NCBI RefSeq assembly: GCF_003966565.1
Contig: NZ_AP018718.1
Coordinates: forward strand, 1,984,001-2,048,000
DNA length: 64,000 nucleotides
Direction of reading: 5' to 3'
Origin: Sulfuricystis multivorans
Lineage (GTDB): Bacteria > Pseudomonadota > Gammaproteobacteria > Burkholderiales > Rhodocyclaceae
In this document: piece by piece, positions 957-51,311 of the stretch
Layout: every line of letters starts with the position of its first letter
How positions within the stretch are numbered: the first letter of the stretch is position 1
Notes under the pieces: model-generated
Seen by the model: the letters and a program-made list of their open reading frames with translations, nothing else
Told to the model about the DNA's origin: nothing
The model's database searches: none
Position numbers and translations under genes: made by a program

Positions 957-1688
957 ATGATACCGCGCTTCCACTGCCCCCCTCCGCTGGCCCCCGGGGC
1001 GCTCGTCGAGCTGCCCGAGACGGTTTGCCATCATGCCCTGCGCGTGCTGCGCATGAGAAACGGTGATCGTCTCATCCTCTTCGACGGCAATGGCGGCGAG
1101 TGGCAGGCGACGCTCAAAGTCGGCGCTGGCGGCACGGCACAAGCGCTGTTGGGTGAATTCGACCCGATCGAGCGCGAATCCCCTTTACAGGTCACGCTTG
1201 CCCAGGCGCTGCCCGCCGGCGACAAGATGGACTGGATCGTCGAAAAATGCGTCGAGCTGGGGGTGGCGGCGATCCAGCCGCTCGCCGCGAAGCGCAGCGT
1301 GATGAGGCTTTCTCTGGAACGCATGGCACGCCGCGTGCAACACTGGAATGCGATCGCCGCCGCGGCCTGCGAACAATGTGGCCGCAACCGTGTCCCGATC
1401 GTCGCGCCGGTGCTTGACCTGCATCAATATCTGGCGACGGCGCAGGCGCAGAATGCCTGCCGTCTGCTGCTCGCGCCACAAGGCGAGGACACGCTCCGCT
1501 CGCTAGCGAGGCCCACGGCGCCGATCGTGGTGATGGTCGGGCCCGAAGGCGGCTGGGACGACGGGGAGATCATCGCCGCGCAGGCGGCGGGTTTCGCCCG
1601 GGTGCGCCTTGGCCCGCGCGTGCTGCGCACCGAGACCGCCGGCGCGGCGCTGTTGGCGGCGCTGCAGGCGCTGTGGGGAGACTTTTGA
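957..1688 (+). CDS. rsmE: 16S rRNA (uracil-1498-N3)-methyltransferase RsmE
   Basis: The 243-residue length is normal for RsmE, a SPOUT-class methyltransferase that methylates U1498 of 16S rRNA using S-adenosylmethionine. The N-terminal PUA-like part (HHALRVLRMRNGD) and the C-terminal trefoil-knot motifs VGPEGGW and RLGPRVLRTETAG are present. A 26-bp interspersed repeat at 1116-1140 encodes the KVGAGGTA stretch of the N-terminal domain. The TGA stop (1686-1688) ends in the first base of a type 1 repeat element, so the 3' end of the gene and the repeat are joined without spacer. There is no strong ribosome-binding site before the start. Confidence 0.95.
   Translation: MIPRFHCPPPLAPGALVELPETVCHHALRVLRMRNGDRLILFDGNGGEWQATLKVGAGGTAQALLGEFDPIERESPLQVTLAQALPAGDKMDWIVEKCVELGVAAIQPLAAKRSVMRLSLERMARRVQHWNAIAAAACEQCGRNRVPIVAPVLDLHQYLATAQAQNACRLLLAPQGEDTLRSLARPTAPIVVMVGPEGGWDDGEIIAAQAAGFARVRLGPRVLRTETAGAALLAALQALWGDF
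1116..1140 (+). repeat. 26-bp interspersed coding repeat, copy 1 (in rsmE)
   Basis: Core GTCGGCGCTGGCGG followed by CACGGCAC. Here it is read as KVGAGGTA within RsmE. Nearly the same bases recur at nine other places in the window. Confidence 0.7.
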
Positions 1689-1893
1689 ACCCAGATTGTC
1701 CATTAGGGCGCAAGGCGATTTCGAGGCGAGGGCGAGGCGATTTGCGTCCGCGCGACGAGCCAATAACCGTGTCTGGCGATACGCGGGGGCGCAAAGGGCC
1801 CGCCCGCAGCCCGAAAGCCGCCGTGTGGGCGATGAAATGACCGTATCAAATGCTCATGGCGCATCAGCCCGCTCTCAATGGATAATCTGAATC
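1688..1893 (-). repeat. Type 1 MITE-like element, copy A (inverted orientation)
   Basis: The left end is AACCCAGATTGTCCATT. The right end (1877-1893) is a degenerate inverted copy with four mismatches. The interior is the reverse complement of copies B-D, hence the minus strand. The first base is the last base of the rsmE stop codon, and the right end runs into the purine-rich leader of pap 16 bp before its ATG. On the minus strand it carries an open frame with the HGGFRAAGGPFAPP and YWLVA motifs seen in the other copies. It fills the whole rsmE-pap gap. Confidence 0.8.
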
Positions 1894-1908
1894 GAAGGGG
1901 AGACATCC

Positions 1909-4807: not shown

Positions 4808-5080
4808 ATGGCTAGAACCGTCAAATGCGTCAAACTCGGCCGCGAGGCCGAAGGTCTCGATTTCCCGCCGATGCCCGGCGAGCTCGGTAAGCGCATCTTC
4901 GAAAACGTCTCGAAGGAAGCCTGGCAGCAGTGGATCCGCATGCAGACGATGATCATCAACGAAAATCGACTGAACCTCGCCGACCCCTCGCACCGCAAAT
5001 ACCTCGCCGAGCAGGTTGAAAAGCACTTCTTCGGCTCCGGCGCCGACCGTGTTCAGGGTTACGTTCCTCCGCGTAGCTGA
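4808..5080 (+). CDS. yggX: Probable Fe(2+)-trafficking protein YggX
   Basis: The 90-residue product has the full YggX pattern: [20 protein letters not shown], then a [17 protein letters not shown] helix and a C-terminal Arg-rich tail. YggX proteins protect Fe-S clusters from oxidative damage and help iron reach them. A GAGGA site precedes the ATG. The last 62 bp (5019-5080, encoding the last 20 residues and the stop) are duplicated at 5174-5235 beyond a 93-bp spacer, and the extreme end is repeated twice more. The gene itself is intact. Confidence 0.95.
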
Positions 5081-5285
5081 CAAAGGTCTTGCGAAGAGCA
5101 AAGTGCTTTCGGCGTAGGCTAACGTGAGCGCAAGCGAACGTTAAGCGAGGCGAACAGCCGAGCGGCCGAAGCCAAAAGCACTTCTTCGGCTCCGGCGCCG
5201 ACCGTGTTCAGGGCTACGTTCCGCCGCGAAGCTAATTGCTACGTTCCGCCGCGAAGCTAATCGCTACGTGCCGCCGCGAAGTTGA
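5019..5285 (+). repeat. Duplicated yggX 3' end with spacer and 25-bp tandem repeats
   Basis: The last 62 bp of yggX (5019-5080) recur at 5174-5235 with about four mismatches, including TGA changed to TAA. The final 23 bp (gctacgttccgccgcgaagc + taa) then repeat with a 25-bp period: 5213-5235, 5238-5260 and 5263-5285. Spacer 5081-5173 begins a GTGCTTTCGGC arm near 5103 and ends GCCGAAGCCAAAAGCAC, a loose inverted repeat. It shares AGGCTAAC, GTTAAGCGA and AGCGGCCGAAGCCAA with the type 2 elements. This fills the whole yggX-rpiA gap; no gene is visible in it. Confidence 0.85.
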
Positions 5286-5289
5286 TCGG

Positions 5290-6045: not shown

Positions 6046-7488
6046 TCAGCGTTTCTTCAGCGGCGGCAGATCGGTGCAGGAACCATGCGCCACTTCGGCC
6101 GCCAGGCCGATGGATTCACCGAGCGTCGGATGCGGATGGATGGTCTTGCCGATATCGATCGCATCGGCGCCCATTTCGATCGCCAGCGCGATCTCGCCGA
6201 TCATGTCGCCTGCCGACGGGCCGACGATCGTGCCGCCGACGATGCGATGGGTTTCGGCATCGAAGATGAGCTTCGTGAAACCATACTCGGCGCCATTGGC
6301 GATCGCGCGGCCGGAGGCGGCCCAGGGGAATTTCGCCACCTCGACCGCCCTCCCCTGCTTCTTCGCTTCGTCCTCGCCCAGTCCCACCCAGGCAACTTCC
6401 GGGTGTGTGTAGGCCACGCCCGGTATCACCGTCGCATCGAAATGCGCCTTTTGCCCGGCAGCGGCTTCGGCGGCGACATGGCCCTGATGCACCGCCTTGT
6501 GCGCGAGCATCGGCTGGCCGACGATGTCGCCGATCGCGAAGATGTGCGGCACATTGGTGCGCATCTGGGTATCGACGGCGATGAAGCCGCGCGCATCGAC
6601 CGCGACACCCGCTTTTTCCGCGCCGATCTTCTTGCCGTTCGGGCTGCGGCCGGCGGCCTGCAGAATCAGGTCGTAGCGCTGCGGCTCATTGGGCGCATGC
6701 TCGCCTTCAAACGTCACCCATAGCCCATCGTCGCGCGCCTTAACGGTGGTGGTCTTCGTCTTCAGCATGATCCGGTCGAAGCGATGGGCATTGTGCTTTT
6801 CCCACACCTTCACTGCGTCGCGGTCGGGGCCTTGCATCAGGCCGTCCATCATCTCGACGACATCGACGCGAGCGCCCAGCGTCGAATAGACGGTGGCCAT
6901 CTCCAGCCCGATGATGCCGCCGCCGATGACGAGCATCTTCTGGGGCGCGCGCGGCAATGCGAGCGCCCCGGTCGAATCGACGATGCGCGGATCATCGGGC
7001 AGGAAGGGCAGATGCACGGCGGCCGAACCCGCGGCGATGATGCACTTCTCGAAGCGGATGACGCGCTTGTGGCCCGTCTTTTCCTGCGCCGGCCCCGCGG
7101 TTTCCTCGACTTCGAGATGATGCGCGTCGAGGAAATGGCCGTAGCCGCGCACCACCTCGACCTTGCGGGCTTTCGCCATGCCAGCAAGGCCTTGGGTCAG
7201 CTTGCCGACCACCTTCTCTTTATGTGCGCGCAGCTTGCCGATGTCGATCTGCGGGGCAGCGAAGTCGACACCAGCAGAGGAGACGCGCTGCGCTTCCTCG
7301 ATCACCGCGGCGATGTGCAAGAGCGCCTTCGACGGAATGCAGCCGACATTGAGGCAGACGCCGCCCAAGGTCGGATAACGCTCGACCAGCACGGTTTTCA
7401 TGCCGAGATCGGCGGCGCGGAAGGCCGCCGAATAGCCGCCGGGGCCTGCGCCGAGCACCAGCAGTTCGGTCTCGATCGGCGCATTCAC
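6046..7488 (-). CDS. lpdA: Dihydrolipoyl dehydrogenase (E3 of pyruvate dehydrogenase)
   Basis: Flavoprotein that reoxidises dihydrolipoamide of the E2 subunit with NAD. The FAD-binding VLGAGPGGYSAAFRAADLG lies at the N-terminus, followed by the redox-active disulfide GGVCLNVGCIPSKAL, the NAD-binding VIGGGIIGLEMATVYSTLGA, and the C-terminal interface with HPHPTLGES (catalytic His-Glu). I start at the GTG at 7488 (protein V/M-NAPIETELLVLG, 480 residues) because it forms a GTGA overlap with the aceF stop and places the FAD motif at the expected position. Longer readings lie in aceF. It has no N-terminal lipoyl domain. It is the only E3 in the window and may also serve PdhABC. Confidence 0.95.
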   Translation of the reverse strand: MNAPIETELLVLGAGPGGYSAAFRAADLGMKTVLVERYPTLGGVCLNVGCIPSKALLHIAAVIEEAQRVSSAGVDFAAPQIDIGKLRAHKEKVVGKLTQGLAGMAKARKVEVVRGYGHFLDAHHLEVEETAGPAQEKTGHKRVIRFEKCIIAAGSAAVHLPFLPDDPRIVDSTGALALPRAPQKMLVIGGGIIGLEMATVYSTLGARVDVVEMMDGLMQGPDRDAVKVWEKHNAHRFDRIMLKTKTTTVKARDDGLWVTFEGEHAPNEPQRYDLILQAAGRSPNGKKIGAEKAGVAVDARGFIAVDTQMRTNVPHIFAIGDIVGQPMLAHKAVHQGHVAAEAAAGQKAHFDATVIPGVAYTHPEVAWVGLGEDEAKKQGRAVEVAKFPWAASGRAIANGAEYGFTKLIFDAETHRIVGGTIVGPSAGDMIGEIALAIEMGADAIDIGKTIHPHPTLGESIGLAAEVAHGSCTDLPPLKKR

Positions 7489-8864
7489 AGCAGCACCCTC
7501 CGGAAGTCGCCGAGCAATTGGGCCAGATAAGCGTTGAAGCGCGTCGCCAACGCGCCGTCGATGACGCGATGATCGGCGGAGAGCGACAGCGGCAGGATCA
7601 GACGCGGCACGAACTCCTGGCCATTCCACACCGGCTTGATGCTGGCCTTGCTGACGCCGAGGATCGCCACCTCCGGCGCATTGACGATCGGCGAGAATGC
7701 GGTGCCGCCGATGCCGCCAACGCTCGAAATGGTGAAGCTCGCGCCCTGCATCTCGGTGGGGGAAAGCTTGCCTTCGCGCGCCTTTTTCGCAAGCTCGGCG
7801 GTTTCCTGCGCGATCTCGATGACCCCCTTCTTGTCGGCCTCTTTCAGCACCGGCACGACCAGGCCGTTCGGCGTGTCGGCAGCAAAGCCGATGTGCCAGT
7901 AGTTTTTATAGACGATCTCGTCGCCGTCGAGCGAGCCGTTGAGCTCGGGATATTTCTTCAGCGCCGCGACGGCTGCCTTGATGATGAAGGCGAGCATCGT
8001 GATCTTGATGCCGGTTTTCTCGTTTTCCTTGTTGAGCGTCACGCGCAAGGCTTCGAGCTCGGTGACGTCGGCATCCTCGTGATAGGTCACTGCCGGGATC
8101 ATCACCCAGTTGCGGGCCAAATTCGGCCCGGAAATCTTCTTGATGCGCGACAAGGGCTTTCTCTCGACCGGGCCGAACTTGGCGAAATCGACCTGCGGCC
8201 AGGGCGGCAGATTCAGCCCTGCCCCCAAACTCGGCGCTGACGGGACGGCACCACCGGCGAGCGCGGCTTTCACGAAGGCCTGGACGTCCTGATGCGTAAT
8301 GCGCCCTTTCGGCCCGCTGCCTTTCACCTGCGCGATGTCGACGCCCAGTTCGCGCGCGAAGCGGCGCACCGAAGGGCTGGCGTGCGGCTTGACGCCATCG
8401 AGCTCGGCGACGATCTCGGCCGGCGATGGCAGGCGCACGGGTGGCGGCAGGATCGCGATGGTCGGCGTCGGCGGCACGGGGCCGGCTGACGCAGACGGCG
8501 CAACGACCGGCGCCGGCACGGCCTCGGGAGTCCGTGCGGCGGCGGCCTCGGGAGTCTGTGCGGCTGCGGCCTCGGGAGTCCGTGCGGCGGCCTCGGGCGC
8601 CGGGGCCGCTGGTGTTGCGGGCGCTGGCGCTTGGGCGGCCGGTTCGAGCACGACGATCGACGTCCCTTCGCTGACCTTGTCGCCGAGCTTGACCTTGACT
8701 TCCTTGACGATGCCCGCGGCGGGGCTGGGCACGTCCATCGTCGCCTTGTCCGATTCGAGCGTGATCAGCGCATCTTCGGCCTTGACCTCATCGCCCGGTT
8801 TGACGTGGATCTCGATGACCGGAACGTCCTTGAAATCACCGATGTCGGGAACTTGGATGTCCAT
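7485..8864 (-). CDS. aceF: Dihydrolipoyllysine acetyltransferase (E2 of pyruvate dehydrogenase)
   Basis: E2 core of the PDH complex, transferring acetyl from lipoamide to CoA. The 459 residues contain one N-terminal lipoyl domain with modified Lys40 (ESDKATMD), an Ala/Pro linker of TPEAAAA(Q/R) octads, an E1/E3-binding domain (VRRFARELGVDIAQVKGSG) and a catalytic domain ending with the HxxxDG motif (DHRVIDG). Many AceF proteins of this type carry two or three lipoyl domains; this one has a single one. A 26-bp interspersed repeat encodes GAVPSAPSL just before the catalytic domain. The start at 8864 lies 5 bp after the aceE stop. Confidence 0.95.
   Translation of the reverse strand: MDIQVPDIGDFKDVPVIEIHVKPGDEVKAEDALITLESDKATMDVPSPAAGIVKEVKVKLGDKVSEGTSIVVLEPAAQAPAPATPAAPAPEAAARTPEAAAAQTPEAAAARTPEAVPAPVVAPSASAGPVPPTPTIAILPPPVRLPSPAEIVAELDGVKPHASPSVRRFARELGVDIAQVKGSGPKGRITHQDVQAFVKAALAGGAVPSAPSLGAGLNLPPWPQVDFAKFGPVERKPLSRIKKISGPNLARNWVMIPAVTYHEDADVTELEALRVTLNKENEKTGIKITMLAFIIKAAVAALKKYPELNGSLDGDEIVYKNYWHIGFAADTPNGLVVPVLKEADKKGVIEIAQETAELAKKAREGKLSPTEMQGASFTISSVGGIGGTAFSPIVNAPEVAILGVSKASIKPVWNGQEFVPRLILPLSLSADHRVIDGALATRFNAYLAQLLGDFRRVLL
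8227..8252 (+). repeat. 26-bp interspersed coding repeat, copy 2 (in aceF)
   Basis: Lies antisense to aceF, which reads it as GAVPSAPSL. Base-for-base identical to the copy at 51286-51311. Confidence 0.7.
8521..8598 (-). repeat. 24-bp tandem repeat in the AceF linker
   Basis: Units beginning at 8521, 8545, 8569 and 8590, each containing GCCTCGGGAGTC or a close variant, encode TPEAAAAQ/TPEAAAAR octads of the flexible linker between the lipoyl and E1/E3-binding domains. The copies are nearly identical, so length variation between strains by slippage is plausible. Confidence 0.75.
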
Positions 8865-8868
8865 CGCC

Positions 8869-11571
<2,703 letters not shown>

Positions 11572-13575: not shown

Positions 13576-13800
13576 GGCAGGCATGCGGTATGGACAGGCA
13601 GCGATTTGCCAGCGGGTGTCGGCAGCCGTCGGCGCAGGGCGTGGATACGGCGCCCGCTTGTCCGAGCATTGCGAGTCGTGGGCGCACCACGCCCAAGCCC
13701 AACGGCTGCCCCAGCCGCGAACCATGAGCCGCCCTGCCCATGCCGACTGCCAACGGCTCTCGAGATCATTTGCAGCCTGGCAACATTGAGGGAGAACTCC
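13576..13800. other. 225-bp gap between oxidoreductase alpha and beta genes
   Basis: No gene is supported. A 68-codon frame (13583-13789) has no ferredoxin cysteines and no family resemblance. A TGGGC/GCCCA inverted repeat lies near 13679-13696. AGGGAGAA before 13801 is the beta-subunit ribosome-binding site. A delta-type ferredoxin gene, which some relatives carry near here, is absent; its function is fused into the flavoprotein downstream. Confidence 0.5.
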
Positions 13801-14808
13801 ATGTCCTACCAACCGATCAAGTTCTACCAGACCGGCACCTTCACGGTCGGCAACCGCCTGCTGCCGCCGGAACAGCGCAGCGTGCAGGCGCAGGTCAAGC
13901 GCTACAACTCGATCAACTCCGGTCACCGCGCCTGCCAGGGCTGCGGCGAGGCGCTCGGCGCACGCTATGCGATCGACGCGGCGATGGAAGCAACCAACGG
14001 TCGGGTGATCTGCGCCAACGCCACTGGCTGTCTGGAAGTGTTCTCGACACCCTATCCGGAAACGAGCTGGCAGGTGCCGTGGCTCCATTCGCTGTTCGGC
14101 AACACCGCGGCGGTGGCGACCGGGATCGCCGCAGCGCTCAAGGTGAAGATGCACAAAGGCGAGCGCCGCCACATCCGTGTCGTCGCCCAGGGCGGCGATG
14201 GCGGCACCACCGACATCGGCTTCGGCTGTCTCTCCGGCATGTTCGAGCGCAACGACGACGTGCTTTACATCTGCTATGACAACAACGGCTACATGAACAC
14301 CGGCGTGCAGCGCTCCTCCGCCACGCCGCCGGCGGCGCGCACCACGACCACGCCGGCGGCCGGGCCCGAGCCGGGCAATCCGTTCGGTCAGGGCAAGTTC
14401 GTGCCGGCGATCGCGATGGCGCACGAGATTCCTTATGTGGCCACCGCGACGGTCGCCGATCTCAGAGACCTCGAAGCCAAGGTGCGCCGCGCGATGGAAT
14501 TTCACGGCGCGCGCTATCTGCACATCCTCGTGCCCTGCCCGCTCGGCTGGGGCACGCAGCCGAACGAGACGATCAAGATGGCGCGGCTCGCCAAGGAGAC
14601 GGGCTTGTTTCCGGTCTTCGAAGCCGAATACGGCGAGCAAAAGTCGGCGCTGGCGATACGGCACCCCCTGCCCGTCGAGGAATATCTGAAGCCGCAGAAA
14701 CGCTTTGCTCACCTGTTCGCGCCGAAGCTGCGCACCGAGGCGATCGCCCGGCTGCAGGCGCTCGCCGATCGCAACATCCGGAAATACAAGCTGCTCGAAG
14801 GAATGTGA
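13801..14808 (+). CDS. 2-oxoacid:acceptor oxidoreductase, beta subunit (TPP-binding)
   Basis: The 335-residue subunit binds TPP and an Fe-S cluster. It shows GHRACQGCGEALGARYA with cluster cysteines, ANATGCLEVFSTPYP, and the TPP/Mg motif GGDGGTTDIGFGCLSG followed by CYDNNGYMNTG. The TPAARTTTTPAAG stretch is the usual PorB loop. A 26-bp interspersed repeat (14640-14665) encodes QKSALAIRHP near the C-terminus. The stop at 14808 is one base from the ATG of the flavoprotein gene, so the two are tightly linked. Confidence 0.92.
   Translation: MSYQPIKFYQTGTFTVGNRLLPPEQRSVQAQVKRYNSINSGHRACQGCGEALGARYAIDAAMEATNGRVICANATGCLEVFSTPYPETSWQVPWLHSLFGNTAAVATGIAAALKVKMHKGERRHIRVVAQGGDGGTTDIGFGCLSGMFERNDDVLYICYDNNGYMNTGVQRSSATPPAARTTTTPAAGPEPGNPFGQGKFVPAIAMAHEIPYVATATVADLRDLEAKVRRAMEFHGARYLHILVPCPLGWGTQPNETIKMARLAKETGLFPVFEAEYGEQKSALAIRHPLPVEEYLKPQKRFAHLFAPKLRTEAIARLQALADRNIRKYKLLEGM
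14640..14665 (+). repeat. 26-bp interspersed coding repeat, copy 3 (in the beta-subunit gene)
   Basis: AAAGTCGGCGCTGGCG then ATACGGCACC. It is read as KSALAIRH, a different frame from rsmE. Confidence 0.65.
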
Positions 14809-17277: not shown

Positions 17278-17293
17278 TTAGAGTAATGCACCC

Positions 17294-18034: not shown

Positions 18035-19224
18035 AGCTGTGCAAGCCGATGGGCATGGCTTTGCCGGGCCTCGGCAGCGACGCCGATCGCCCGTGCAAAG
18101 CCCTCGGCGAGCCGCGCCAGGTCGACCACGCCCGGCATTTCCGGCATCTCCCAGGTGGCCAGATAGGCGGCGAGTTTGTTGCTGCGGCCGGCCAGCGAAG
18201 GCGGCAGGAAACTCACTCGCGGCAGGGCAAACGCGGTGGCCACGATATGGCCGTGCAGACTGGTGCCGGCGAACCCTTGGCTCGCCGCGATCAGCGCCGC
18301 GATCTGCCAGACATCGAGCGCTGCGAAGATGCGCCAGGACGCCGTTGCGAGCCGAGCAGCGCAGCGCCGATACGCATCGAGGTCATCATGCCAGGGGGCG
18401 GTACCGGCACGGAAAAAGACGATGCCCCAGCCCGTTTCCGCCGCGATGGCATCAAAGCCACGGGCCAGCGAGTCCAGCGTCGCGTCATCGCCACATTCGG
18501 CGGCGAATTGCACGGCGACGAAGCCGGCAGGAAAGTACGAGCGGATGCCGGCCACCTCGCCCCGTGTCGTCTCCTGTGCGATACGTGCGCCGAAGCGCTC
18601 GGCGATGACCGCCACCGGATCGGGCGCGAGTGCGGCCGCAATACCGTCCTCGGCCAGGGCGGCCTGGGTGGCTCGGTCACGCACAAAAAGGGAATCAGCC
18701 CCTGCCAGCTTCGCCAGCACCTCGCGCCGCAACGACGCATCGGCATGGGCGAGATCCGCCCCGCCGACGGCATTGAACACGATGCGCCGTGCCGCCGGAA
18801 AAAGCTCGCGGCCGATCACATAAGGCGCTGCGGCAGTGAGGCCAAAGCGCTCGGTTGCAAAGGTACGCGCACCCACAGGGTCGGTGTCGAAGCGCGCGAT
18901 CAGCCCGGAGGCTTCCTCCGGTTCGGCCAGCATCACCGCCGCCTGCCAGGCGGTGGTGGTCAGGATCTCGCCGCCGACGTGGATGATCTCGACCGGCACG
19001 CCGTGATACCTGGCTGCCAGATCGGCGATCGCTTCGATGCGAAAGCCGCCATAGGGCGTCAGGTCGCGTGCCACCAAACCCGCCGGGATGAGCGTTCTGC
19101 CCTCACACAGCGCCGCCGCGATCCGGCCGAACAGCAGATCGCCGAAGTTGTGGCGGTCGTGGGCGCCGAAGAGCAGCGCCGGTGCCGTCCCGTCAGCGCC
19201 GACTTCGTCTCCGATGCTCGCCGT
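17971..19224 (-). CDS. Polysaccharide pyruvyl transferase family protein, start uncertain
   Basis: The frame resembles polysaccharide pyruvyl transferases, which add ketal pyruvate from PEP to exported glycans. It has an N-terminal LLFGAHDRHNFGDLLFGRI, then VIGRELFPAARRIVFNAVGG, LFVRDRATQAAL and a C-terminal GFAGTSLHGHIVATAFALPR. The conserved N-terminal motif lies upstream of the first ordinary start (TTG at 19077). Between it and the in-frame stop at 19237 there is no ATG, GTG or TTG. The ATG at 19229 is in the wrong frame. I show the frame from an ACG at 19224, six bases after GGAGG. A non-standard start, or a frameshift in a 26-bp repeat inside this stretch (19181-19206), are the alternatives. 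Confidence 0.7.
   Translation of the reverse strand, partial: TASIGDEVGADGTAPALLFGAHDRHNFGDLLFGRIAAALCEGRTLIPAGLVARDLTPYGGFRIEAIADLAARYHGVPVEIIHVGGEILTTTAWQAAVMLAEPEEASGLIARFDTDPVGARTFATERFGLTAAAPYVIGRELFPAARRIVFNAVGGADLAHADASLRREVLAKLAGADSLFVRDRATQAALAEDGIAAALAPDPVAVIAERFGARIAQETTRGEVAGIRSYFPAGFVAVQFAAECGDDATLDSLARGFDAIAAETGWGIVFFRAGTAPWHDDLDAYRRCAARLATASWRIFAALDVWQIAALIAASQGFAGTSLHGHIVATAFALPRVSFLPPSLAGRSNKLAAYLATWEMPEMPGVVDLARLAEGFARAIGVAAEARQSHAHRLAQLYRRTAADSIACIRSQCEPGQ
19181..19206 (-). repeat. 26-bp interspersed coding repeat, copy 4 (pyruvyl transferase N-terminus)
   Basis: Reads VGADGTAP in the pyruvyl transferase frame, exactly where the gene lacks a proper start. Confidence 0.65.
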
Positions 19225-31244: not shown

Positions 31245-32509
31245 TCGAATTCAAATTGCCCGCGCTGGGCGCCGACATGGACGAAGGGACCCTGCTCGAA
31301 TGGAAGGTGAAACCCGGCGACCGTGTCGAGAAGGGCCAGGTGATCGCGATCGTCGATACCGCGAAGGCGGCGATCGACGTCGAAAGCTGGCAGGCGGGCA
31401 TCGTCCATCGCTTGATCGCCGAGCCTGGGCAGAAGATGCCGGTCGGCACCGTGATGGCCTTGCTGCTCGAACCCGGCGAGACACCACCGCCGGCCGAACC
31501 AGTGACGGCAACCACACAAACCGGCACCGGCGAAAGCCCGGACGTCGCGTCGAGCACTGGTGCACTGCGCAAAGTCGGCGCTGGCGGAAATGAGGACGTC
31601 CCGCCGGGCGCCGACTCGTCTCGGAAAGTCGGCGCTGGCGGGACGGCACCCCCAGCCGTTCCAGAGATGGGGGAACGCCGCCGCATCTCGCCGGCGGCGA
31701 GGAAACGCGCCGCCGAGCTGGGCATCGATGTCGGCAGCATCGCCGGCAGCGGACCGCAGGGCGCGGTGACGCTCGAAGATGTCGAAGCGGTAGCCCAGTC
31801 GCGCATGCCCAGCGCAGCGCAAAAGCCGACCACCGACCGTCGCGCCGAGATGCGCAAGACCATCGCCGCGGCGATGAGCCGTTCCAAGCGCGAGATCCCG
31901 CATTACTACGTCAGCGAGGACATCCCGCTTCCCCGCATGCTGGCCTGGCTGCAGGAAAGCAACGCGGCACGGCCGCTGGCCGAGCGCCTATTGCCGGCCG
32001 CGGTTTTGCTCAAGGCCGTGGCGCGCGCATTGGCCGACTATCCCGAGCTCAACGGCCATTATCTCGACGGCGGCTTCCGCGCGGCCGAGAAAGTGCATCT
32101 GGGCGTGGCGATCTCGCTGCGCGAAGGCGGTCTCATCGCCCCGGCGCTGCTCGATGCCGATACCAAGCCGCTCACAAAGCTGATGCAGGAGCTCGCCGAC
32201 CTGGTGAGGCGCACCCGCGCCGGCACGCTAAAGCGCACGGAGCTGACCGATGCGACGATCACGGTGACCAATCTCGGCGACCAGGGCAGCCACGGCGTGT
32301 TCGGCGTGATCACGCCGCCGCAGGTGGCGCTGGTCGGTTTCGGGCGCATCGCCGAACGGCCGTGGGCGGAAAACGGGGGGCTCAAGGTGCTGCCGGTGGT
32401 CACCGCGAGCCTGTCGGCCGACCACCGCGTCTCCGACGGCCATCGTGGCGCGCTGTTCCTGCGCACGCTTTCCGATCTGCTGCAACAACCGGAGGAGCTG
32501 GCGAAATGA
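31241..32509 (+). CDS. pdhC: Dihydrolipoamide acetyltransferase (E2), second PDH
   Basis: The 422 residues comprise a lipoyl domain with Lys42 ([12 protein letters not shown]; Thr-Ala replaces the common Ser-Asp before the Lys), a linker of about 75 residues, a peripheral-subunit-binding domain ([21 protein letters not shown]) and a catalytic domain with HxxxDG (DHRVSDG). The linker holds two copies of the 26-bp interspersed repeat, read as RKVGAGG and [10 protein letters not shown]. No E3 gene follows, so the LpdA at 6046-7488 is a likely partner. It overlaps the acyl carrier protein gene. Confidence 0.9.
31571..31589 (+). repeat. 26-bp interspersed coding repeat, copy 5 (partial, pdhC linker)
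   Basis: Only the first 18-19 bases match the consensus. It is read as KVGAGG, the same frame as rsmE. Confidence 0.6.
31625..31650 (+). repeat. 26-bp interspersed coding repeat, copy 6 (pdhC linker)
   Basis: Full consensus copy, 54 bp after copy 5 and in the same frame, read as KVGAGGTAP. Confidence 0.7.
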
Positions 32510-35444: not shown

Positions 35445-35455
35445 GAAAAGCCACC

Positions 35456-37439: not shown

Positions 37440-38584
37440 TTCTTCCTCCCGCCACGCTGGGCATGCTCGGCGGCGGCCAGCTCGGCCGCTTCTTCGTGAT
37501 CGCCGCGCACGAAATGGGCTACCGCGTCGTCGTGCTCGATCCCGATCCACACAGCCCCGCCGGCAGGATCGCCGACCTGCACATCCAGGCCGCCTATGAC
37601 GATATCGACGCGCTTGAGCAGCTCGCCGGCCAGTGTGCAGCGGTGACCACCGAGTTCGAGAACGTGCCCGCCGACACGCTGGCCTACCTCGCCAAATTCG
37701 TCACCGTGCGGCCGTCGGCCGAGGCCGTGGCCATCTGCCAGAACCGCAGCGCAGAGAAGGCGTTTCTGAAGAAACACGGCTTTCCGCACGCACCCTACGC
37801 CGACATCCGCACCGAGGCCGACCTGAAGAACGCCAATGCCGGTCTCTTCCCCGGCATCCTCAAGGTGGCGCGCTTCGGCTATGACGGCAAGGGCCAGGCG
37901 CGCGTCGCTTCGCGTGAGGAAGCGCTCAAAGCCTGGGCGAGCTTCCGCCACGAGCCCTGCGTGCTCGAGCAGCAACTGAAGCTCGACTATGAAGTTTCGG
38001 TGGTGCTCGCGCGCGACGAGGCGGGTCGGGTGAAGTGTTTCCCACCCGTCGAAAACAGCCACAGAAAGGGCATCCTCGACGTCTCGATCGCGCCGGCGCG
38101 CACCTCGGGCTGCTTGGCCGGCAACGCGGAAGAGATCGCCGAGGGCATCGCGCAAAAGATGGACTACGTCGGCACGCTCGGCGTCGAATTCTTCGTCGTG
38201 CACGGCCAGCTCTATGTGAATGAGATGGCGCCGCGCCCACACAATTCGGGCCACTACACGCTCGATGCCTGTGTCACCAACCAGTTCGAGCAACAGCTGC
38301 GCGCGCTCTGCGGCCTGCCGCTCGCCGATCCGCGCCAGCACTCGGCGGCCGTCATGGTCAATCTGCTCGGCGACATCTGGTACTGTGAGGACCCACATCA
38401 CGCCAAGGAGCCGGACTGGTCGCAGCTGCTCGCCATCCCGAATCTCAAGCTGCACCTCTACGGCAAACACCATCCCCGCCCGGGGCGCAAGATGGGGCAT
38501 TTCACCGTGATCGGCGCCAACGCCGAAGAAGTGCAAAAGTCGGCGCTGGCGGCACGGCACGCGATGGGGATCGGAGATGACTGA
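37436..38584 (+). CDS. purK: N5-carboxyaminoimidazole ribonucleotide synthase
   Basis: ATP-grasp enzyme of 382 residues that carboxylates AIR, the substrate of PurE. It has [22 protein letters not shown], the ATP-grasp [10 protein letters not shown] and the metal-binding [13 protein letters not shown]. The start is a GTG at 37436, in a GTGA overlap with purE. A 26-bp interspersed repeat supplies QKSALAARH at the extreme C-terminus, and the tsaC start lies 8 bp inside the end. Confidence 0.95.
38536..38560 (+). repeat. 26-bp interspersed coding repeat, copy 7 (purK 3' end)
   Basis: AAAGTCGGCGCTGGCGG then CACGGCAC, the same bases as the rsmE copy but read as KSALAARH. Confidence 0.7.
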
Positions 38585-40181: not shown

Positions 40182-42245
40182 TCAATTCGTCAGCTTGCGG
40201 TAGATGTCGGCGATCTTGAGCGGCAGTTTCTTCACATCGTCGAGCACCGTGTAGGCCGCCGGGCCCATCATGTGCTTCAGATAATCGGCCCCTTGGCGGT
40301 CGATGGTGATGCAATAGCTGCGGATCCCCTGCTCGCGCGCTTCCTGCAGCGCGCGGCGCGTGTCTTCGATGCCATAGGTACCGCGATATTCGTCGCCGAA
40401 ATCGTCGGGGCGGCCATCCGAGAGCGTCACCAGAAGCTTGTGGCGCGCCGGCTGCGCAGCGAGCAGGCACGTTAGATGGCGGATCGCCACGCCCATGCGC
40501 GTGTAGTCCTTGGCCTCGATGCCGTCGATGCGCGCGCGCACCGTATCGTCATAAGGATCGGCGAAGTTCTTGATGCAGTAGATGTCGCAGCGCGTGCGCG
40601 TCCAGCCGGAAAAACCGTAGATCGCGTAGGCATCGCCGAGTTTTTCCAGCGCCTCGCAGAGCATCACCAGCGCCTCGCGCTCGGCATCATTGACCCAGCC
40701 CTTGGTCGAGCCGCTCATGTCGATCATGAACAGTGCCGCCAGGCTGCGTTCATTCCTGACGCGTCGGCAAAACAGCCGCGGCGAGGGTTCGGCGCCACTT
40801 TTGCGGTCATTGACCGCCTCGATCAGCGCATCGAGATCGATCTCCTCGCCCTCGCTCTGACGGCCGAGCATGCGATCCTCGCCGCGCAGCGCCTCGAAGC
40901 GGCGCTTCAGCTGCGCGATGAAATGGGCGTAACGCTGGCGTGTGGCGCGCACGAAGGCGCCGTCACCCGGCTTCACGTCCGTGACATAGACATGACACCA
41001 GCCGCGCCGGTAGGCGTTGCGATGGAAGTCCCACTCGTCATAGCGATGATCGGGCTCGCGGCTGTTCACCATTTCCGGCGCGCCCTCTTTCGGCCGGTCG
41101 TCGGGCGTCCACGGTGCATCCCCGGCGGGCGCGAGCGCCTCGGGCGGCACCTGGCCGAGATCCTGCAGCAGCGAAGCCGCCGCCGCGCGTGCCGCCTCCG
41201 GCAACTGCACGGCCTGGCCGTCGATATGCACTTCCAGCTCACCCGTCGCGGTGTTCATCGCGGCCGTGAATTCGTGGCCACCCGCCTCGCGCTTGCCCGC
41301 AGCGCCTTTCAGCGCACCGAGCGCCTTCCTCAGCGTCTCGGTGTCGCGCGCGATGCGCTCGTTGCGCACGCGCCAGGCGATCCCCGGTTCCAGCCGGGCA
41401 ATGAAAGTCGGCGCTGGCGGCACGGCGCCGGCGGCCATCAGACGCGCCAGCCAATCGAGCGAGACACGCACATCGGCGCCCTGCGCCTGCAATTCGGCCA
41501 ATGCAGGATGCAGCATCTGCGGCCAGGGCTCGCGCAGCTCGGCGAGCAACGCGCCCAGCCCCGGCAGATCGCGTGCAACACAAGCTTCCAGCCGCACTGC
41601 TTCGAGATGCTCAAGCCAAGTGAGCGCCTGCTCGCGCTCCGGCCAGCGTGACAGCGCCGCCTCCAGATCGACGTCAAAAGTGCCATAGCGTGTCTGCGCC
41701 CACAGCTGCACCGCCAGCCCCTGATAGGCGCGGCGGTTGTCCTCGGCATTGGCAAAGCGGGAAATGCGTTCGGGCAGATAGATCGTCTCGGTGTCCGTCC
41801 AGGGATGGCTACCCGCTTTCAGCGCCAGCGGCCGGCCGGAAAGCCCCAGCACGAACCGCGACAGGCGTGGTTCGACCTCGGCGAACTTCGCCGGCAGCCG
41901 GCCTTCGCGGGCGGCGAGGAAAGCGTCTACGTCGCGCAGGGTCTCGATCGCCGGCCGCAGCCCCTGCTTGTCGAATACATCGAGCCCCTGAATCACCCAG
42001 GCTTCGAAATCCTTTTCGCTGAAGCGCTCGAGCATTCCGGGCGCGAGCGTGGCGATCAGATAGGCGAGCTCGGTATTGGTCTTCGCCGCGCCGCGCGCGA
42101 CCCGCAGCACGAACTCCTGCTGGCGGCGCGGCAGTGCTTCGAGCATCGCCGCGAGCCGCTCGATCGAGCGGTGCGACGGCGAAGCGAACAGAAAGGCGTC
42201 GAGCAGTTCCTCGAGCTCGTGGGTGAACAGCTTTCTTGCGCTCAA
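40182..42245 (-). CDS. NorD/CbbO-type VWA-domain protein
   Basis: The 687-residue protein has a helical N-terminal two-thirds and a C-terminal von Willebrand A domain with the MIDAS pattern [11 protein letters not shown] near residue 500 and SDGRPDD near the end. Partner MoxR-type ATPases (CbbQ/NorQ) act with such proteins to remodel enzymes: CbbQO activates RuBisCO and NorQD inserts metal in nitric oxide reductase. No RuBisCO or nor gene is in the window, so the client is unknown. A 26-bp interspersed repeat encodes [10 protein letters not shown]. It overlaps the ATPase gene by 4 bp. Confidence 0.88.
41404..41429 (+). repeat. 26-bp interspersed coding repeat, copy 8 (in the NorD/CbbO-like gene)
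   Basis: Antisense to the gene, which reads it as [10 protein letters not shown]; compare GAVPSAPSL in AceF. Confidence 0.7.
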
Positions 42246-47557: not shown

Positions 47558-48475
47558 ATGCGCCGGCTCGTCACCCTGCTTGGCTTCGCTGCCCTGCTTC
47601 TCGGCTGCGCCCCCGAACCGCAGTCGCTGCTGCTGACCGTCAATCCGTGGCTCGGCTATGACCCCTTCGTGCTGGCGCGCGAACGCGGGCTGCTCGATCC
47701 ACGCCTGCGTATCGTCGAGGTCATGTCCAACAGCGACAGCCGGCGTGCGCTTGCCAATGGCCTGATCGAAGCGACCGCGCTCACCCTCGACGAAGCGCTG
47801 CGCGCGGCCGACGCCGGCATACCGATCCGGATCGTCGCCGTGCTCGATGTCTCCGAAGGCGCCGATGCGCTGCTCGCGCGCCCTGATATCGAACGCCTCG
47901 ATCAGCTCGAAGGCAAGCGTATCGGCGTCGAGAGCGGCGCCGTCGGCAGCCTGATGCTTGACCGGCTGCTGACCACCGCCGGGCTTCAACGAGACGCGGT
48001 GCAGATCGTCGCGGTTGAAGCGAGCCAACATGCCGCCCTGCTGCAAAGCGGCCGCGTCGATGCCGTGATCACCTTCGAGCCGATGAGGACGCAGCTTGAG
48101 CGCCGCGGCTACCGTGTGCTGTTCGATAGCCGCGCGCTGCCCGGCGAGATCATCGACGTGCTCGTCGCGCGCCCCGGTGTCGATACGGCGCTGCTGCTCG
48201 ACACCTGGCGTGTGGGCTTGACGGCATTGGCAAGGGATCGGCTGGCGGCAGCGGAGGTGCTCGCACACGGCGTCGACCTCTCGGTCGAGGAATATCAGCA
48301 GGCGCTTTCCGGTTTGCGTTTCGTTTTTCCAGAAGAAAGCGCACGCTGGCTTTCCGGCGGCAAGACTGCACCGCTGGTCGAGCGGGCCGCTGCGATCGCC
48401 GAGGAACTGAGGCATCGCGGCGAGATCAAACGGCCGCCCGAATGGCAGATTTTGCTGGGAAGGGCGACGCAATGA
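47558..48475 (+). CDS. Periplasmic substrate-binding lipoprotein (NitT/TauT/NMT1 type)
   Basis: The 305-residue lipoprotein has a lipobox LLLGCAPE (lipidated Cys17), then an SBP fold: LLLTVNPWLGYDPFVLARERGLLD, RRALANGLIEATALTLDEAL, LEGKRIGVESGAVGSLMLDRLL and GRVDAVITFEPMRTQLE. It resembles NitT/TauT-type binding proteins, which take small acids or thiamine precursors. No ABC ATPase or permease gene is nearby. It lies between a c-di-GMP gene and two membrane sensors, so a signalling role in ligand sensing is inferred. Confidence 0.88.
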   Translation: MRRLVTLLGFAALLLGCAPEPQSLLLTVNPWLGYDPFVLARERGLLDPRLRIVEVMSNSDSRRALANGLIEATALTLDEALRAADAGIPIRIVAVLDVSEGADALLARPDIERLDQLEGKRIGVESGAVGSLMLDRLLTTAGLQRDAVQIVAVEASQHAALLQSGRVDAVITFEPMRTQLERRGYRVLFDSRALPGEIIDVLVARPGVDTALLLDTWRVGLTALARDRLAAAEVLAHGVDLSVEEYQQALSGLRFVFPEESARWLSGGKTAPLVERAAAIAEELRHRGEIKRPPEWQILLGRATQ

Positions 48476-49791
48476 ATTGGCTGCTGCGTTTCCCCGTCCG
48501 GTGGGCTTTGCCCATCGTGCTGTTGCTGTTGAGCCTCCTCGCCATCATCTGGCTACATCTCTTGCAGCGCCATGAGTACGCGCTGGCGGTCGAAAACGAC
48601 GAGACGATGCGGCTCAAGGAAAGGCTGGCGATCGAGCAGACACGGCTCGAAATGCAGCTGGGCCTGAACAACCGGCTGCAGGTGCGACGCATCGTCAGCT
48701 CGCTCGGATTGCGCCGCGATCTCATGCATGCCTGGCTGATTTCGCCCGAGGGGCGCGTTGTGGCATCGCTTTCGCGGCTCGAGATCGACGAACCCTGGGA
48801 AAAGATCCGCGCCCGCCTGCCAGCACCGCTCGCCGCTGCGCTTGCCAGCCTGCCGGCCGAAGCGCCGGCACTTGACTTGAGCCGTCCTGCCAGCGCCGAC
48901 TTTCTGCTCGGCAAGATAAATGTCCGCCCCGATCATCGCCTCGTCGTCGTCAGCGATCTCGCCGCCCCGCTCTCCCGCCGGCTGGCCTCCGGCCGCAGCG
49001 AGCTGGCGTTGCAGATCGGCGCCTTCCTGCTGTTCGCGCTCATGGTCGGCGTGCTGTTGCATCTGATCTGGGCCAAACGCATGCAACGCCTGTTACACGC
49101 CGCCCAACGCCTTGGCGCCGGCGATTTCACCGCGCGCGCCGCGTTGCCGGGGGCGGACGAGCTCGCCAACATCGGCGCCGCCTTCGACACGATGGCCCAA
49201 CGGGTCGCCCAGCAGCAGGAGGAAATTCGCCGGTTGGCAACGCTGATCGAACAATCACCGCTCGTAGCAATCATCTGGCGCAACGAACCCGGCTGGCCGG
49301 TGGCGTTCGTCAGCGACAACATCGTGCGCTGGGGATTCGACAAACGCGCGCTGCTCTCTGGCGCCATCCCGTATGCCGATTTGATCCATCCGGACGATCT
49401 GCCCATGATCGCCGCCGATGTAGAGCAGCATCTCGCCCAAGGACCCGACCGTTATGTCCAGGAATACCGGCTCCGCGATGCCTTCGGTCACTGGCGCTGG
49501 ATCGAGGATCACACTTGGCTGCTTCGTGATGAAAAGGGACAGGTGAGCACGATCCAGGGCGTGCTGCTCGATATCAGCGCACGACGGGAAGCCGAGGAGG
49601 CGCTGCACCACCAGGCCGCCGAACTGGCCGAACGCAATGCCGAGCTGGAACGCTTCGCCGCCGCGGCGACCGGCCGCGAAGAGGAAATGATCCGCCTCAA
49701 GCGTGAGATCAACGCCCTGTGCCGGGAATTCGGCCGGCCCGAACCCTTCGATCTCGGCTGGCTCGAAACCGAACGGGAAGCCCGGCGATGA
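48472..49791 (+). CDS. Membrane HAMP-PAS signalling protein without output kinase
   Basis: The 439-residue protein has a transmembrane helix at about 7-25, a periplasmic region to about 175, a second helix (about 178-198), a HAMP domain, a PAS domain (about 265-375; DLIHPDDLPMIAADVEQHL and HWRWIEDHTWLLRDEKG) and a C-terminal coiled coil. It has no kinase, GGDEF or methyl-accepting part, so it presumably relays its signal to the kinase encoded next. A 26-bp interspersed repeat encodes RPASADF in the periplasmic part. ATGA joins it to the lipoprotein gene. Confidence 0.85.
   Translation: MNWLLRFPVRWALPIVLLLLSLLAIIWLHLLQRHEYALAVENDETMRLKERLAIEQTRLEMQLGLNNRLQVRRIVSSLGLRRDLMHAWLISPEGRVVASLSRLEIDEPWEKIRARLPAPLAAALASLPAEAPALDLSRPASADFLLGKINVRPDHRLVVVSDLAAPLSRRLASGRSELALQIGAFLLFALMVGVLLHLIWAKRMQRLLHAAQRLGAGDFTARAALPGADELANIGAAFDTMAQRVAQQQEEIRRLATLIEQSPLVAIIWRNEPGWPVAFVSDNIVRWGFDKRALLSGAIPYADLIHPDDLPMIAADVEQHLAQGPDRYVQEYRLRDAFGHWRWIEDHTWLLRDEKGQVSTIQGVLLDISARREAEEALHHQAAELAERNAELERFAAAATGREEEMIRLKREINALCREFGRPEPFDLGWLETEREARR
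48881..48903 (-). repeat. 26-bp interspersed coding repeat, copy 9 (in the HAMP-PAS gene)
   Basis: Reverse orientation relative to the gene, read as RPASADF, with one change in the GGCGGGAC stretch. Confidence 0.6.
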
Positions 49792-51275
49792 AATTTTCCT
49801 CGCCCTCGCGCGCCGCGCTACGCATCACGCTGGCCTATCTCATCTTTGCCGGCCTGTGGATCGTCGCCTCCGATGCCGTACTGGCGTTCTTCGTTCGCGA
49901 CGTCGAAACGATCGCCTCGCTGGGCATGCTCAAGGGGCTGACCTTCGTTGCCGTCACCGCGCTGCTGTTGTACCTGCTGCTCGTGCGCCGTTTCACCGGA
50001 CTTGCCAACGCCTTCGCCGAACGCGATGCAGCATTGGCCGATCTGCAACAGGGTCTCGCGCGCTTCGAGGCGGTCTTCGAACAGGCTGCGGTCGGCATCG
50101 CGCTGGTCGCACCCGATGGCCGCTGGCTGAAAGTCAACCGCCGGCTGGCCGAGATCGTCGGTTACACGCCCGAAGAGTTGCTGGAAAAGACCTTCCAGGA
50201 CATCACCCATCCGGACGATCTGGCCGCCGACCTCGCCTATGTGCGGCAGATGCTGGCACGCGAGATCGAACGCTATGCGATGGAAAAGCGCTACATCCGC
50301 AAGGATGGCTCGACGGTGTGGATCCTCCTCACCGTGGCGCTGGTGTGGCAAGCCAATGGCAAGCCGGACTACTTCATCTCGGTCGTCGAGGACATTACCC
50401 GCCAGCACGAAGCCGAAACGCGGCTCAAGGAGGCGCTCGCCTGGCAGAAACGGGCACGGCTGGCCACGCTGAACCAGATGGAAGACGCCCTGGCCGCACG
50501 GCGTGAGGCCGAAGCCGCCAACGCCGAGTTGCGCGAACTCAACGCCACTCTCGAAGCGCGGGTCGCCGAGCGCACCGAGGCGCTGAAAGCGCTGAATCAG
50601 TCGCTGGAGAGCTTCGTCTATTCGGTCTCGCACGATCTGAAGACACCGCTCAGAGGCATCGACGGATATTGCCGGCTGCTGGAGGAGGACTATGCCGAGC
50701 GGCTCGACGACGAGGGCCGGCTGTTCCTCGCCAACGTGCGCAATGGGGTGACGCGCATGCAGGCACTGATCGACGATTTGCTCGCCTATTCGCGCATGGA
50801 GCGCAAGCCGCTCACCACCACCGCGGTCGATCCGCGCGGCATCATCGAGAACCTGCTGGCGGAGCGAGGCCAGGAGATCGAAGCACGCAATGTCCAGGTG
50901 CGCATCGCGCTGCCGCCGCTCACCCTCGCCGCCGATGCCGACGGCCTGGCGATCGTGCTGCGCAATCTGCTCGACAACGCGCTGAAATTCACCCGCCACA
51001 CGCCGCGAGCAGAAATCGTCATCGAAGGCGGAGCGCGCGATGGAGGCGTTCATCTGATGGTGCGCGACAACGGCATCGGCTTCGAGATGAAGTATCACGA
51101 TCGCATCTTCGAGATCTTCCAGCGGCTGCACCGGCTCGAGGACTATCCGGGCACCGGCGTGGGGCTTGCGCTGGTGAAAAAGGCCGTCGAGCGCATGGGC
51201 GGGCGCGTCTGGGCGGAAAGCGCGCCCGGCGCCGGTGCGACGTTCCATCTCTGGCTGCCGGCCGCCGTAGGCTGA
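49788..51275 (+). CDS. Membrane PAS sensor histidine kinase
   Basis: The 495-residue kinase has two membrane helices (about 13-35 and 48-66), one PAS (about 90-205, ITHPDDLAADLAYV), a coiled coil, then a dimerisation domain with His282 in SVSHDLKTPLRGIDGY and an ATPase domain (NLLDNALKFT, DNGIGFEMKY, GTGVGLALVKKAVERMGG). It is of the phytochrome-like class that usually pairs with Rcp1-type regulators such as the one at 43787. It is the last gene of the sensory operon. Confidence 0.92.
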   Translation: MKFSSPSRAALRITLAYLIFAGLWIVASDAVLAFFVRDVETIASLGMLKGLTFVAVTALLLYLLLVRRFTGLANAFAERDAALADLQQGLARFEAVFEQAAVGIALVAPDGRWLKVNRRLAEIVGYTPEELLEKTFQDITHPDDLAADLAYVRQMLAREIERYAMEKRYIRKDGSTVWILLTVALVWQANGKPDYFISVVEDITRQHEAETRLKEALAWQKRARLATLNQMEDALAARREAEAANAELRELNATLEARVAERTEALKALNQSLESFVYSVSHDLKTPLRGIDGYCRLLEEDYAERLDDEGRLFLANVRNGVTRMQALIDDLLAYSRMERKPLTTTAVDPRGIIENLLAERGQEIEARNVQVRIALPPLTLAADADGLAIVLRNLLDNALKFTRHTPRAEIVIEGGARDGGVHLMVRDNGIGFEMKYHDRIFEIFQRLHRLEDYPGTGVGLALVKKAVERMGGRVWAESAPGAGATFHLWLPAAVG

Positions 51276-51285
51276 GCCAACCCCG

Positions 51286-51311
51286 AAACTCGGCGCTGAC
51301 GGGACGGCACC
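51286..51311 (+). repeat. 26-bp interspersed repeat, copy 10 (intergenic)
   Basis: Identical to the aceF copy (8227-8252). It is the only copy outside an annotated gene, in the 83-bp gap before the TPP enzyme gene. Confidence 0.7.

What the first reader, a model, noticed from the sequence alone, without database searches (positions are those of the whole stretch)
1116..51311. A 26-bp sequence repeated ten times, nearly always inside genes and in different frames
Core GTCGGCGCTGGCGG, then GACGGCACC, occurs at 1116, 8227, 14640, 19181(-), 31571 (partial), 31625, 38536, 41404, 48881(-) and 51286. Hosts include rsmE, aceF, pdhC, purK and a NorD-like gene, read as [17 protein letters not shown] or GAVPPAPTF. 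Eight copies share one strand orientation whatever the gene direction. Codon preference alone would not keep the same bases in three frames. It may be an uptake, segregation or protein-binding motif, or a mobile mini-insertion.
Basis: seen in the sequence. Interest (0 to 1): 0.75.

Follow-up and report, generated by a model that had tools for sequence, protein, structure and literature searches.

The report
Possible third family of DNA-uptake signals
A 25-letter DNA word is written hundreds of times into the chromosomes of a group of environmental bacteria, without lengthening the genes examined and with different spellings in different genera; it looks like a self-recognition tag for taking up DNA of one's own kind, as known from the Neisseria and Haemophilus families.

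Summary
The genome (2.8 Mb, Rhodocyclaceae) holds 322 copies of the 17-base core at up to 2 mismatches, against 3 for the reversed control. The window holds 11 full copies and one 54-bp repeat unit. Consensus: AAAGTCGGCGCTGGCGGGACGGCAC.

It is not a mini-insertion: against a same-genus genome nearly free of it, 10 distinct host proteins differ by -1 to +3 residues at the site, never by +8 or +9. It is held as DNA: rare codons GCT and GCA fill 18 of 19 and 21 of 22 synonymous places. It is strand-symmetric, absent from 100 kb sampled of two plasmids, depleted in the sister's unique segments, and rare in divergent gene gaps. In the family sample ten of 68 genera carry many copies of AAAGTC-N12-ACGGC, with genus-specific middles; other families of the order lie at or near control level.

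Best reading: an unreported DNA-uptake-sequence system, like DUS/USS but different in sequence. Uptake is inferred; no receptor was found. The 54-bp hairpin unit is a secondary, lineage-specific insertion.

The parts
1116..1140 (+). motif copy (1 mismatch) inside rsmE (957-1688 +), read KVGAGGTA
   Evidence: RsmE domains by Pfam; one residue shorter than G005 at the site
8227..8251 (+). motif copy (2 mismatches) antisense in an E2 acyltransferase (aceF-type) gene (7485-8909 -), read GAVPSAPSL
14640..14664 (+). motif copy (2 mismatches) in a gene with a TPP-binding enzyme domain (13606-14808 +), read QKSALAIRH
   Evidence: no length change against G005
19182..19206 (-). motif copy (2 mismatches); called intergenic here, at the start of a 414-residue reading frame in the sister genome G017
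31571..31624 (+). 54-bp secondary unit (motif start, spacer, inverted motif arm): 18 codons in frame that the sister genome lacks here
31625..31649 (+). perfect motif copy inside a second E2 acyltransferase gene (30902-32509 +)
38536..38560 (+). motif copy (1 mismatch) near the C-terminus of purK (37436-38584 +), read QKSALAARH
   Evidence: no length change against G005
41404..41428 (+). motif copy (2 mismatches) antisense in a VWA-domain (NorD-like by recall) gene (40182-42245 -), read GAVPPAPTF
48879..48903 (-). motif copy (2 mismatches) antisense in a HAMP/PAS gene (48442-49791 +)
51286..51310 (+). motif copy (2 mismatches), called intergenic; reading frames end at 51275 (+) and 51329 (-), a convergent gap

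Best explanation
The 25-bp sequence AAAGTCGGCGCTGGCGGGACGGCAC is most likely a DNA uptake sequence: a self-recognition tag that helps the type IV pilus / ComEC competence machinery take up DNA of the same kind. Copies arise in place, by base changes and by replacement through recombination with incoming tagged DNA, and spread by uptake-biased molecular drive. That leaves protein length unchanged, uses whatever reading frame the host gene tolerates, and concentrates copies in the shared chromosome. Genera have drifted into dialects around a fixed frame AAAGTC-N12-ACGGC. SHOWN: over-representation, strand symmetry, unchanged length at the host sites compared, DNA-level conservation, absence from the sampled plasmid DNA, depletion in the sister's unique segments, rarity in divergent gaps, genus-specific spellings within one family. 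INFERRED: that the function is uptake, that a pilin-type receptor reads it, and the drive. The 54-bp unit (motif start plus inverted arm) is a separate insertion, found in four species of the genus sample, that sits directly before motif copies.
For: 151+171 copies versus 1+2 reversed; 17 of 18 same-genus relatives have 302-681. Merged loci 68 + and 69 - in the first 1.28 Mb from dnaA. No 8-9 residue gap against G005 in 16 alignments, 10 distinct host genes, nor against two solved RsmE homologues. Third-codon identity to the sister 229 of 267 in the motif versus 4036 of 5311 in flanks. GCT 18 of 19 and GCA 21 of 22 where the called genes of the 464-kb sample use them at 7% and 9%. No copy in 100 kb sampled from C2 and C3, which carry ParA-type genes and integrases. 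Four copies in 167 kb of long sister-only segments versus 52 in 274 kb shared, p=1.4e-7. Copies in convergent / same-direction / divergent gaps: own 6, 15, 1 (6.6, 4.1, 1.0 per 10 kb), sister 8, 13, 1 (9.1, 3.5, 0.8). Bipartite pattern with 63 or more copies in 21 of 150 family genomes, ten of 68 genera, with distinct middles; of 291 genomes of other families only one stands clearly above its control. Treangen et al. 2008 (abstract and passages seen) report for Neisseria DUS: over-represented in the core, absent from recently acquired genes, in permissive places, themselves highly conserved.
Against: No uptake data. ComEC is found with or without the motif (34 of 37 genomes, G005 included). 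The ComP_DUS family is in 138 of 150 family genomes, scores about as well in G005 (46 bits) as in G000 (44 bits) and far better in some motif-free genomes (100 bits in G117), while motif-rich G086 and G177 show no match: no receptor follows the motif. The own genome's long unique segments are not depleted (3 copies in 27 kb, p=0.35). The motif is longer (about 25 nt) than DUS, and 322 copies is fewer than the 1,000 or more that a paper gives as general for uptake signals (passage). Inverted terminator pairs were not found at up to 5 mismatches: the only pair within 100 bp was same-strand, in the sister. Codon positions 1 and 2 show no extra conservation. Trace copies outside the family exist: G047 (10 core matches against 1, one of them exact) and 24-mer hits in MAGs titled Casimicrobiaceae and Sideroxyarcus.
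Confidence: 0.68

Rival explanations
1. A chromosome-wide protein-binding site for nucleoid organisation, recombination or repair, selected rather than driven by uptake.
For: Confined to the chromosome in the sample, DNA-level conservation, spacing slightly more even than random (CV 0.83 against 0.98, p=0.016).
Against: No strand or replichore bias, about 25 bp long, genus-specific spellings, near loss in one member of the genus, depletion in the sister's unique segments.
Confidence: 0.18
2. A packaging or transfer signal of a gene transfer agent or transducing phage, enriched by biased gene transfer much as an uptake signal would be.
For: The same drive logic would give in-place accumulation and core enrichment (inference; no call supports it directly).
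Against: No search for such an agent was made. Strand-symmetric dense copies and dialects are not a feature of packaging signals that I know of (recalled). Only 14 contigs of the viral collection hold the 24-mer with one free base.
Confidence: 0.05
3. A mobile mini-insertion (SDR-, RPE- or REP-like) that inserted into genes in frame.
For: The related 54-bp unit does behave as an in-frame insertion: present in proteins that look like IspH and TrpC, and differing between sister genomes at the same site.
Against: The 25-bp motif itself changes protein length by at most 3 residues at the 10 distinct host genes that could be aligned to G005, and by none in RsmE against two solved homologues. Exact loss from G005 is not excluded in principle.
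Confidence: 0.04
4. Codon bias or a recurrent protein motif.
For: Recurrent peptides [24 protein letters not shown].
Against: Six frames and intergenic copies; codon shuffles give a mean of 6.0 against 51.
Confidence: 0.01

Closest known systems
DNA uptake sequence (DUS) of Neisseriaceae
   Same: Many copies, core-enriched, conserved, in permissive places, with dialects around a conserved core (Frye 2013 and Treangen 2008: abstracts and passages read).
   Different: No sequence match: GCCGTCTGAA occurs once in 464 kb, reversed control 0. About 25 nt and two-part, against continuous motifs of up to about 13 nt (passage). Rhodocyclaceae, not Neisseriaceae; uptake untested.
Uptake signal sequence (USS) of Pasteurellaceae
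   Same: Discontinuous extended motif, two dialects, genome-wide (passages read). The start AAAGTC resembles the AAAGTG of the extended Haemophilus USS given there.
   Different: AAGTGCGGT occurs twice in 464 kb against once reversed, ACAAGCGGT 0 against 10; different core and bacterial family.
REP / CGTC- and GTAG-tagged palindromes (Di Nocera group 2013, passages read)
   Same: The 54-bp unit folds as a hairpin (z -4.67) and forms tandem arrays; REPs can sit inside genes.
   Different: REPs are palindromic and mostly intergenic; 51 of 74 copies of this motif are inside genes, and it is not inserted.
Small dispersed repeats of cyanobacteria and Rickettsia palindromic elements (recalled; listings only)
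   Same: Short repeats, also within genes.
   Different: Those are insertions (recalled); this motif replaces sequence in place at the sites compared.

Membership tests
DUS/USS-type uptake sequence (functional class) | Strong genome-wide over-representation of one short sequence | tested here: met
   322 versus 3; 302-681 in 17 of 18 genus relatives
DUS/USS-type uptake sequence (functional class) | Both strands equally, no origin/terminus bias | tested here: met
   68 + and 69 - merged loci on one replichore; total 151 and 171
DUS/USS-type uptake sequence (functional class) | In-place origin, tolerated in several reading frames | tested here: met
DUS/USS-type uptake sequence (functional class) | Enriched in shared chromosome, missing from acquired DNA | tested here: met
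   plasmids 0 in 100 of 252 kb; sister-only segments p=1.4e-7; own unique segments not significant
DUS/USS-type uptake sequence (functional class) | Dialects with a conserved core that follow taxonomy | tested here: met
   genus-specific middles; no family tree was built, so congruence with phylogeny is only by genus label
DUS/USS-type uptake sequence (functional class) | Inverted pairs serving as transcription terminators | tested here: inconclusive
   densest in convergent gaps, but no inverted pair at up to 5 mismatches in either sample; one inverted pair seen in G028
DUS/USS-type uptake sequence (functional class) | Preferential uptake or transformation | not testable with these tools
   bench test needed
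DUS/USS-type uptake sequence (functional class) | Dedicated receptor (ComP or ComN type) | tested here: inconclusive
   ComP_DUS in G000 but also in G005 and in 138 of 150 family genomes, with no match in motif-rich G086 and G177; ComN not searched
Neisseria DUS or Pasteurellaceae USS (sequence family) | Consensus GCCGTCTGAA, AAGTGCGGT or ACAAGCGGT enriched | tested here: not met
   1, 2 and 0 occurrences in 464 kb
Mobile mini-insertion (SDR, RPE, REP) | Extra length relative to an empty orthologous site | tested here: not met
   for the 25-bp motif; met only by the 54-bp unit

The most novel reading that the evidence does not exclude
A third, independently evolved family of DNA-uptake sequences, in environmental Rhodocyclaceae: a long two-part signal with a fixed 12-base spacer, at least four genus-level dialects that could fence gene exchange between genera, and a 54-bp parasite that spreads by landing on the signal.
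Probability: 0.62. Interest if true: 0.86.

Novelty: new variant of a known kind. Interest (0 to 1): 0.77.

Why it matters
The papers seen here describe self-specific DNA uptake in Neisseriaceae and Pasteurellaceae, which live on mucosal surfaces of people and animals. A system in environmental Rhodocyclaceae would be a new independent origin, would let the old question of why uptake signals evolve (selfish drive or sex among one's own kind) be tested outside pathogens, and would offer a handle for transforming a group common in wastewater treatment (abstract). The two-part signal and its dialects give a natural series in which to seek the receptor by co-variation, and the motif-poor member of the genus offers a natural comparison.

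Tried and rejected
Insertion hypothesis: tested against G005, the sister G017 and solved structures; rejected for the motif. Replichore or segregation signal: no strand bias. Another dialect in G005: the strongest 10-mer in 100 kb was ATGCCGGGCA (7 against 0.52 expected) and no 12-mer reached 6 copies; but this test is weak, since in a 100-kb control stretch of the own genome the motif's own 12-mers did not make the list either, though they did in the window. G036: an AAAAGTC-containing repeat (7 copies in 100 kb) looked like a dialect but showed no ACGGC half at the right distance and was not pursued. Receptor by presence/absence: ComEC and ComP_DUS are too widespread and do not follow the motif. 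Pilin-like proteins of G000 and a partial set of G005 were compared by eye only. Rfam: no match at gathering scores in the window. A text search for the motif letters found no paper; searches on Rhodocyclaceae or Rhodocyclales with uptake sequences, and on uptake sequences at large, showed no such report in their listings. The library lacks most subscription papers, and listings were capped.

Limits. Gene calls are from my own codon-usage caller, not a standard annotation. In one search, 23 of 67 own and 11 of 60 sister copies could not be located in the other genome and are left out of the shared/absent counts; the sister stretch covers only part of the own stretch. In one search only in-gene copies whose best hit covered 12 residues on either side at 45% identity or more were counted: 16 alignments, 10 distinct host genes; one, the shikimate-dehydrogenase-like ILGAGGAAR site (name recalled), may be a chance match. 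sample a larger group evenly, so counts hold for the sample.
Full report
THE OBSERVATION. The window holds 11 full copies of a 25-mer, AAAGTCGGCGCTGGCGGGACGGCAC, at up to 5 mismatches, plus one 54-bp unit that starts like the motif. Chance is excluded: in the 464-kb stretch of the chromosome that ends with the window there are 74 copies at up to 5 mismatches and none in the reversed sequence; at up to 7 mismatches 107 against 7. Genome-wide the 17-base core at up to 2 mismatches is found 151 times on + and 171 on -, against 1 and 2 for the reversed control. Shuffling synonymous codons within the called genes leaves 6.0 copies on average (20 runs, largest 12) against 51 real ones.

THE HOST. 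The genome has 2.81 Mb in three contigs. Among the named loci that hold the motif, the best matches to the own 464 kb are a Rhodocyclaceae MAG (87.5% over 8.0 kb) and a Sulfuritalea MAG (82.1% over 4.7 kb); I take the host as Rhodocyclaceae on that basis. C1 is the chromosome, with dnaA at base 473. C2 carries a Rep3 initiator, ParA-type and ParB proteins and an integrase; C3 a ParA-type protein, an actin-like protein and an integrase: I take both as plasmids.

IT IS NOT AN INSERTION. G005, assigned to the same genus, has only 4 matches of the core against 1 in the control, and no 25-mer at up to 5 mismatches in 321 kb sampled. Its orthologous proteins align through the motif site without a 9-codon gap: over 16 alignments (10 distinct host genes) the net difference is 0 in 11, -1 in 3, +1 in 1 and +3 in 1; of 562 control windows in the same alignments 490 have 0. 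PurK, not in that count because the site lies near the C-terminus, is also ungapped. RsmE aligns without a gap at the site to the two solved homologues printed. The motif has therefore been written over existing coding sequence at these sites. The surrounding protein is less conserved than elsewhere (16.8 against 22.3 identical residues of 33): copies sit in permissive places.

IT IS KEPT AS DNA. Between the own sample and its sister G017 (syntenic blocks of roughly 77-94% identity), third codon positions inside the motif are identical in 229 of 267 cases against 4036 of 5311 in flanks; the reverse comparison gives 247 of 290 against 4449 of 5731. Positions 1 and 2 show no such difference, and intergenic copies only a small one (161 of 175 against 445 of 509; 239 of 274 against 2406 of 2861). 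In copies read in frame 0 the consensus codons are rare ones: GCT in 18 of 19 alanine codons at that place (7% in the called genes of the sample), GCA in 21 of 22 (9%), AAA in 19 of 19 lysines (28%). Because copies are chosen by likeness to the motif, this figure alone is biased; the codon shuffle is the fairer control. Most locatable copies are shared with the sister (39 of 44 own, 46 of 49 sister copies). At 39 shared sites chosen in the own genome the own copies carry 121 mismatches in all and the sister's 90 (summed), and the sister has more copies (478 against 322), as if the window's lineage were losing the signal (inference).

WHERE IT SITS. All six frames are used, four of them mainly; the two rare ones read arginine/tryptophan-rich or glutamine/arginine-rich peptides. 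Of 74 copies in the own sample, 51 are inside genes, 5 at edges, 18 between genes. Copies in convergent, same-direction and divergent gaps number 6, 15 and 1 in the own sample (6.6, 4.1 and 1.0 per 10 kb) and 8, 13 and 1 in the sister's (9.1, 3.5 and 0.8): divergent gaps, where promoters lie, are poor in copies. On the first 1.28 Mb from the origin there are 68 + and 69 - loci after tandem copies are merged, so no polarity; spacing over the first 1.44 Mb is slightly more even than random (CV 0.83 against 0.98, p=0.016). The plasmids have none in 100 of 252 kb sampled, where the chromosomal density would give about 11 (my arithmetic). Long sister-only segments hold 4 copies in 167 kb against 52 in 274 kb of shared sequence (p=1.4e-7); the own genome's long segments (27 kb, 3 copies) show no depletion (p=0.35).

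DIALECTS. In G028, another genus of the family, the over-represented word is AAAAGTCAGTC followed at the same distance by ACGGCG. AAAGTC-N12-ACGGC has 63 to 677 copies in 21 of 150 family genomes (reversed controls at most 7), which fall in ten of the 68 genera sampled. Within these genera numbers vary: G124 of g47 has 2 and G107 and G154 of g90 have 12 and 26. Weak excesses occur in G097 (16 against 7), G082 (10 against 0) and G096 (8 against 0); the rest are at or near control level. Among 300 genomes of the order, 291 belong to other families and only G245 stands out (18 against 2, a mixture of two spellings, perhaps a mixed assembly). Traces outside the family exist: G047 has 10 core matches against 1, one exact, and the exact 24-mer occurs in MAGs titled Casimicrobiaceae, Sideroxyarcus and Gammaproteobacteria. 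The middle differs by genus: close to GGCGCTGGCGRG in g1, g9 (there GGYGCTGG), and, from about four loci each, g2, g47, g62, g70 and g88; GACGCTGG in g69; AGTCCCnnCRGn in g11; AGYCGTSGYGGY in g90. A conserved frame with drifting letters is what Frye et al. 2013 describe for Neisseriaceae DUS, there with a CTG core (abstract and passages read).

THE 54-BP UNIT. Some copies are preceded by one to several units of 54 bp that begin like the motif and contain its inverted arm. The window example with its following motif (31571-31650) folds as a strong hairpin (z -4.67). It is found in four of 19 genus members (44, 56, 12 and 8 matches) and once in a genome of another family. It adds 18 codons in frame to proteins including a second E2 acyltransferase here and proteins that look like IspH and TrpC (the last two names are recalled, no family search was run), and its presence differs between the sister genomes at the same site. 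It is a true insertion, apparently using the motif as landing place (inference).

MECHANISM. Treangen et al. [quoted passage not shown] The present motif shows the first four in the tests above (the second in the sister and the plasmids, not in the own unique segments), and its replacement of whole stretches relative to G005 agrees with the fifth. I therefore favour an uptake signal read by the type IV pilus machinery. What is missing is any uptake measurement and a receptor: ComEC occurs in 34 of 37 genomes with or without the motif; ComP_DUS-type pilins occur in 138 of 150 family genomes, score best in motif-free ones, and show no match in motif-rich G086 and G177.

NOVELTY. Neisseria and Pasteurellaceae signals are not enriched here. 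The passages read of a 2025 paper name USS in Pasteurellaceae and DUS in Neisseriaceae and no other family. My text searches showed no report of this motif or of an uptake sequence in Rhodocyclaceae, within a library that lacks most subscription journals. As a functional class it is known; as a sequence family, host group and two-part design it appears new.

Noticed in passing
window 1685-1889, 27273-27488, 35234-35448, 57714-58206: A second repeat family with ends TTGAACCCAGATTGTCCATTAG and, in three of the four, its inverse; about 205-220 bp, one copy about 493 bp that holds the next repeat. MITE-like. 29 listed matches to the first copy in sister G017.
   Followed up: partly
window 17072-17280 and 57850-58124: Near-identical repeated segments (98-99%), with many partial matches in G003 and G017.
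   Followed up: no
window 5019-5287: Direct repeats of 60 and 25 bases at 155- and 25-base spacing.
   Followed up: no
window 8515-8611: 24-base direct repeats within the aceF-type gene.
   Followed up: no
G003, locus L224, rsmE: The rsmE of G003 carries an in-frame stretch of about 50 extra residues at the motif site, unlike the 54-bp unit.
   Followed up: no
G036, loci L301-L305: A different repeat around TGGAAAAGTC, 7 copies in 100 kb against 0 reversed, three of them followed by ATGACCGT.
   Followed up: no
G245: A genome of another family with 18 bipartite matches in two spellings against 2 in the control; possibly a mixed assembly or foreign DNA.
   Followed up: no
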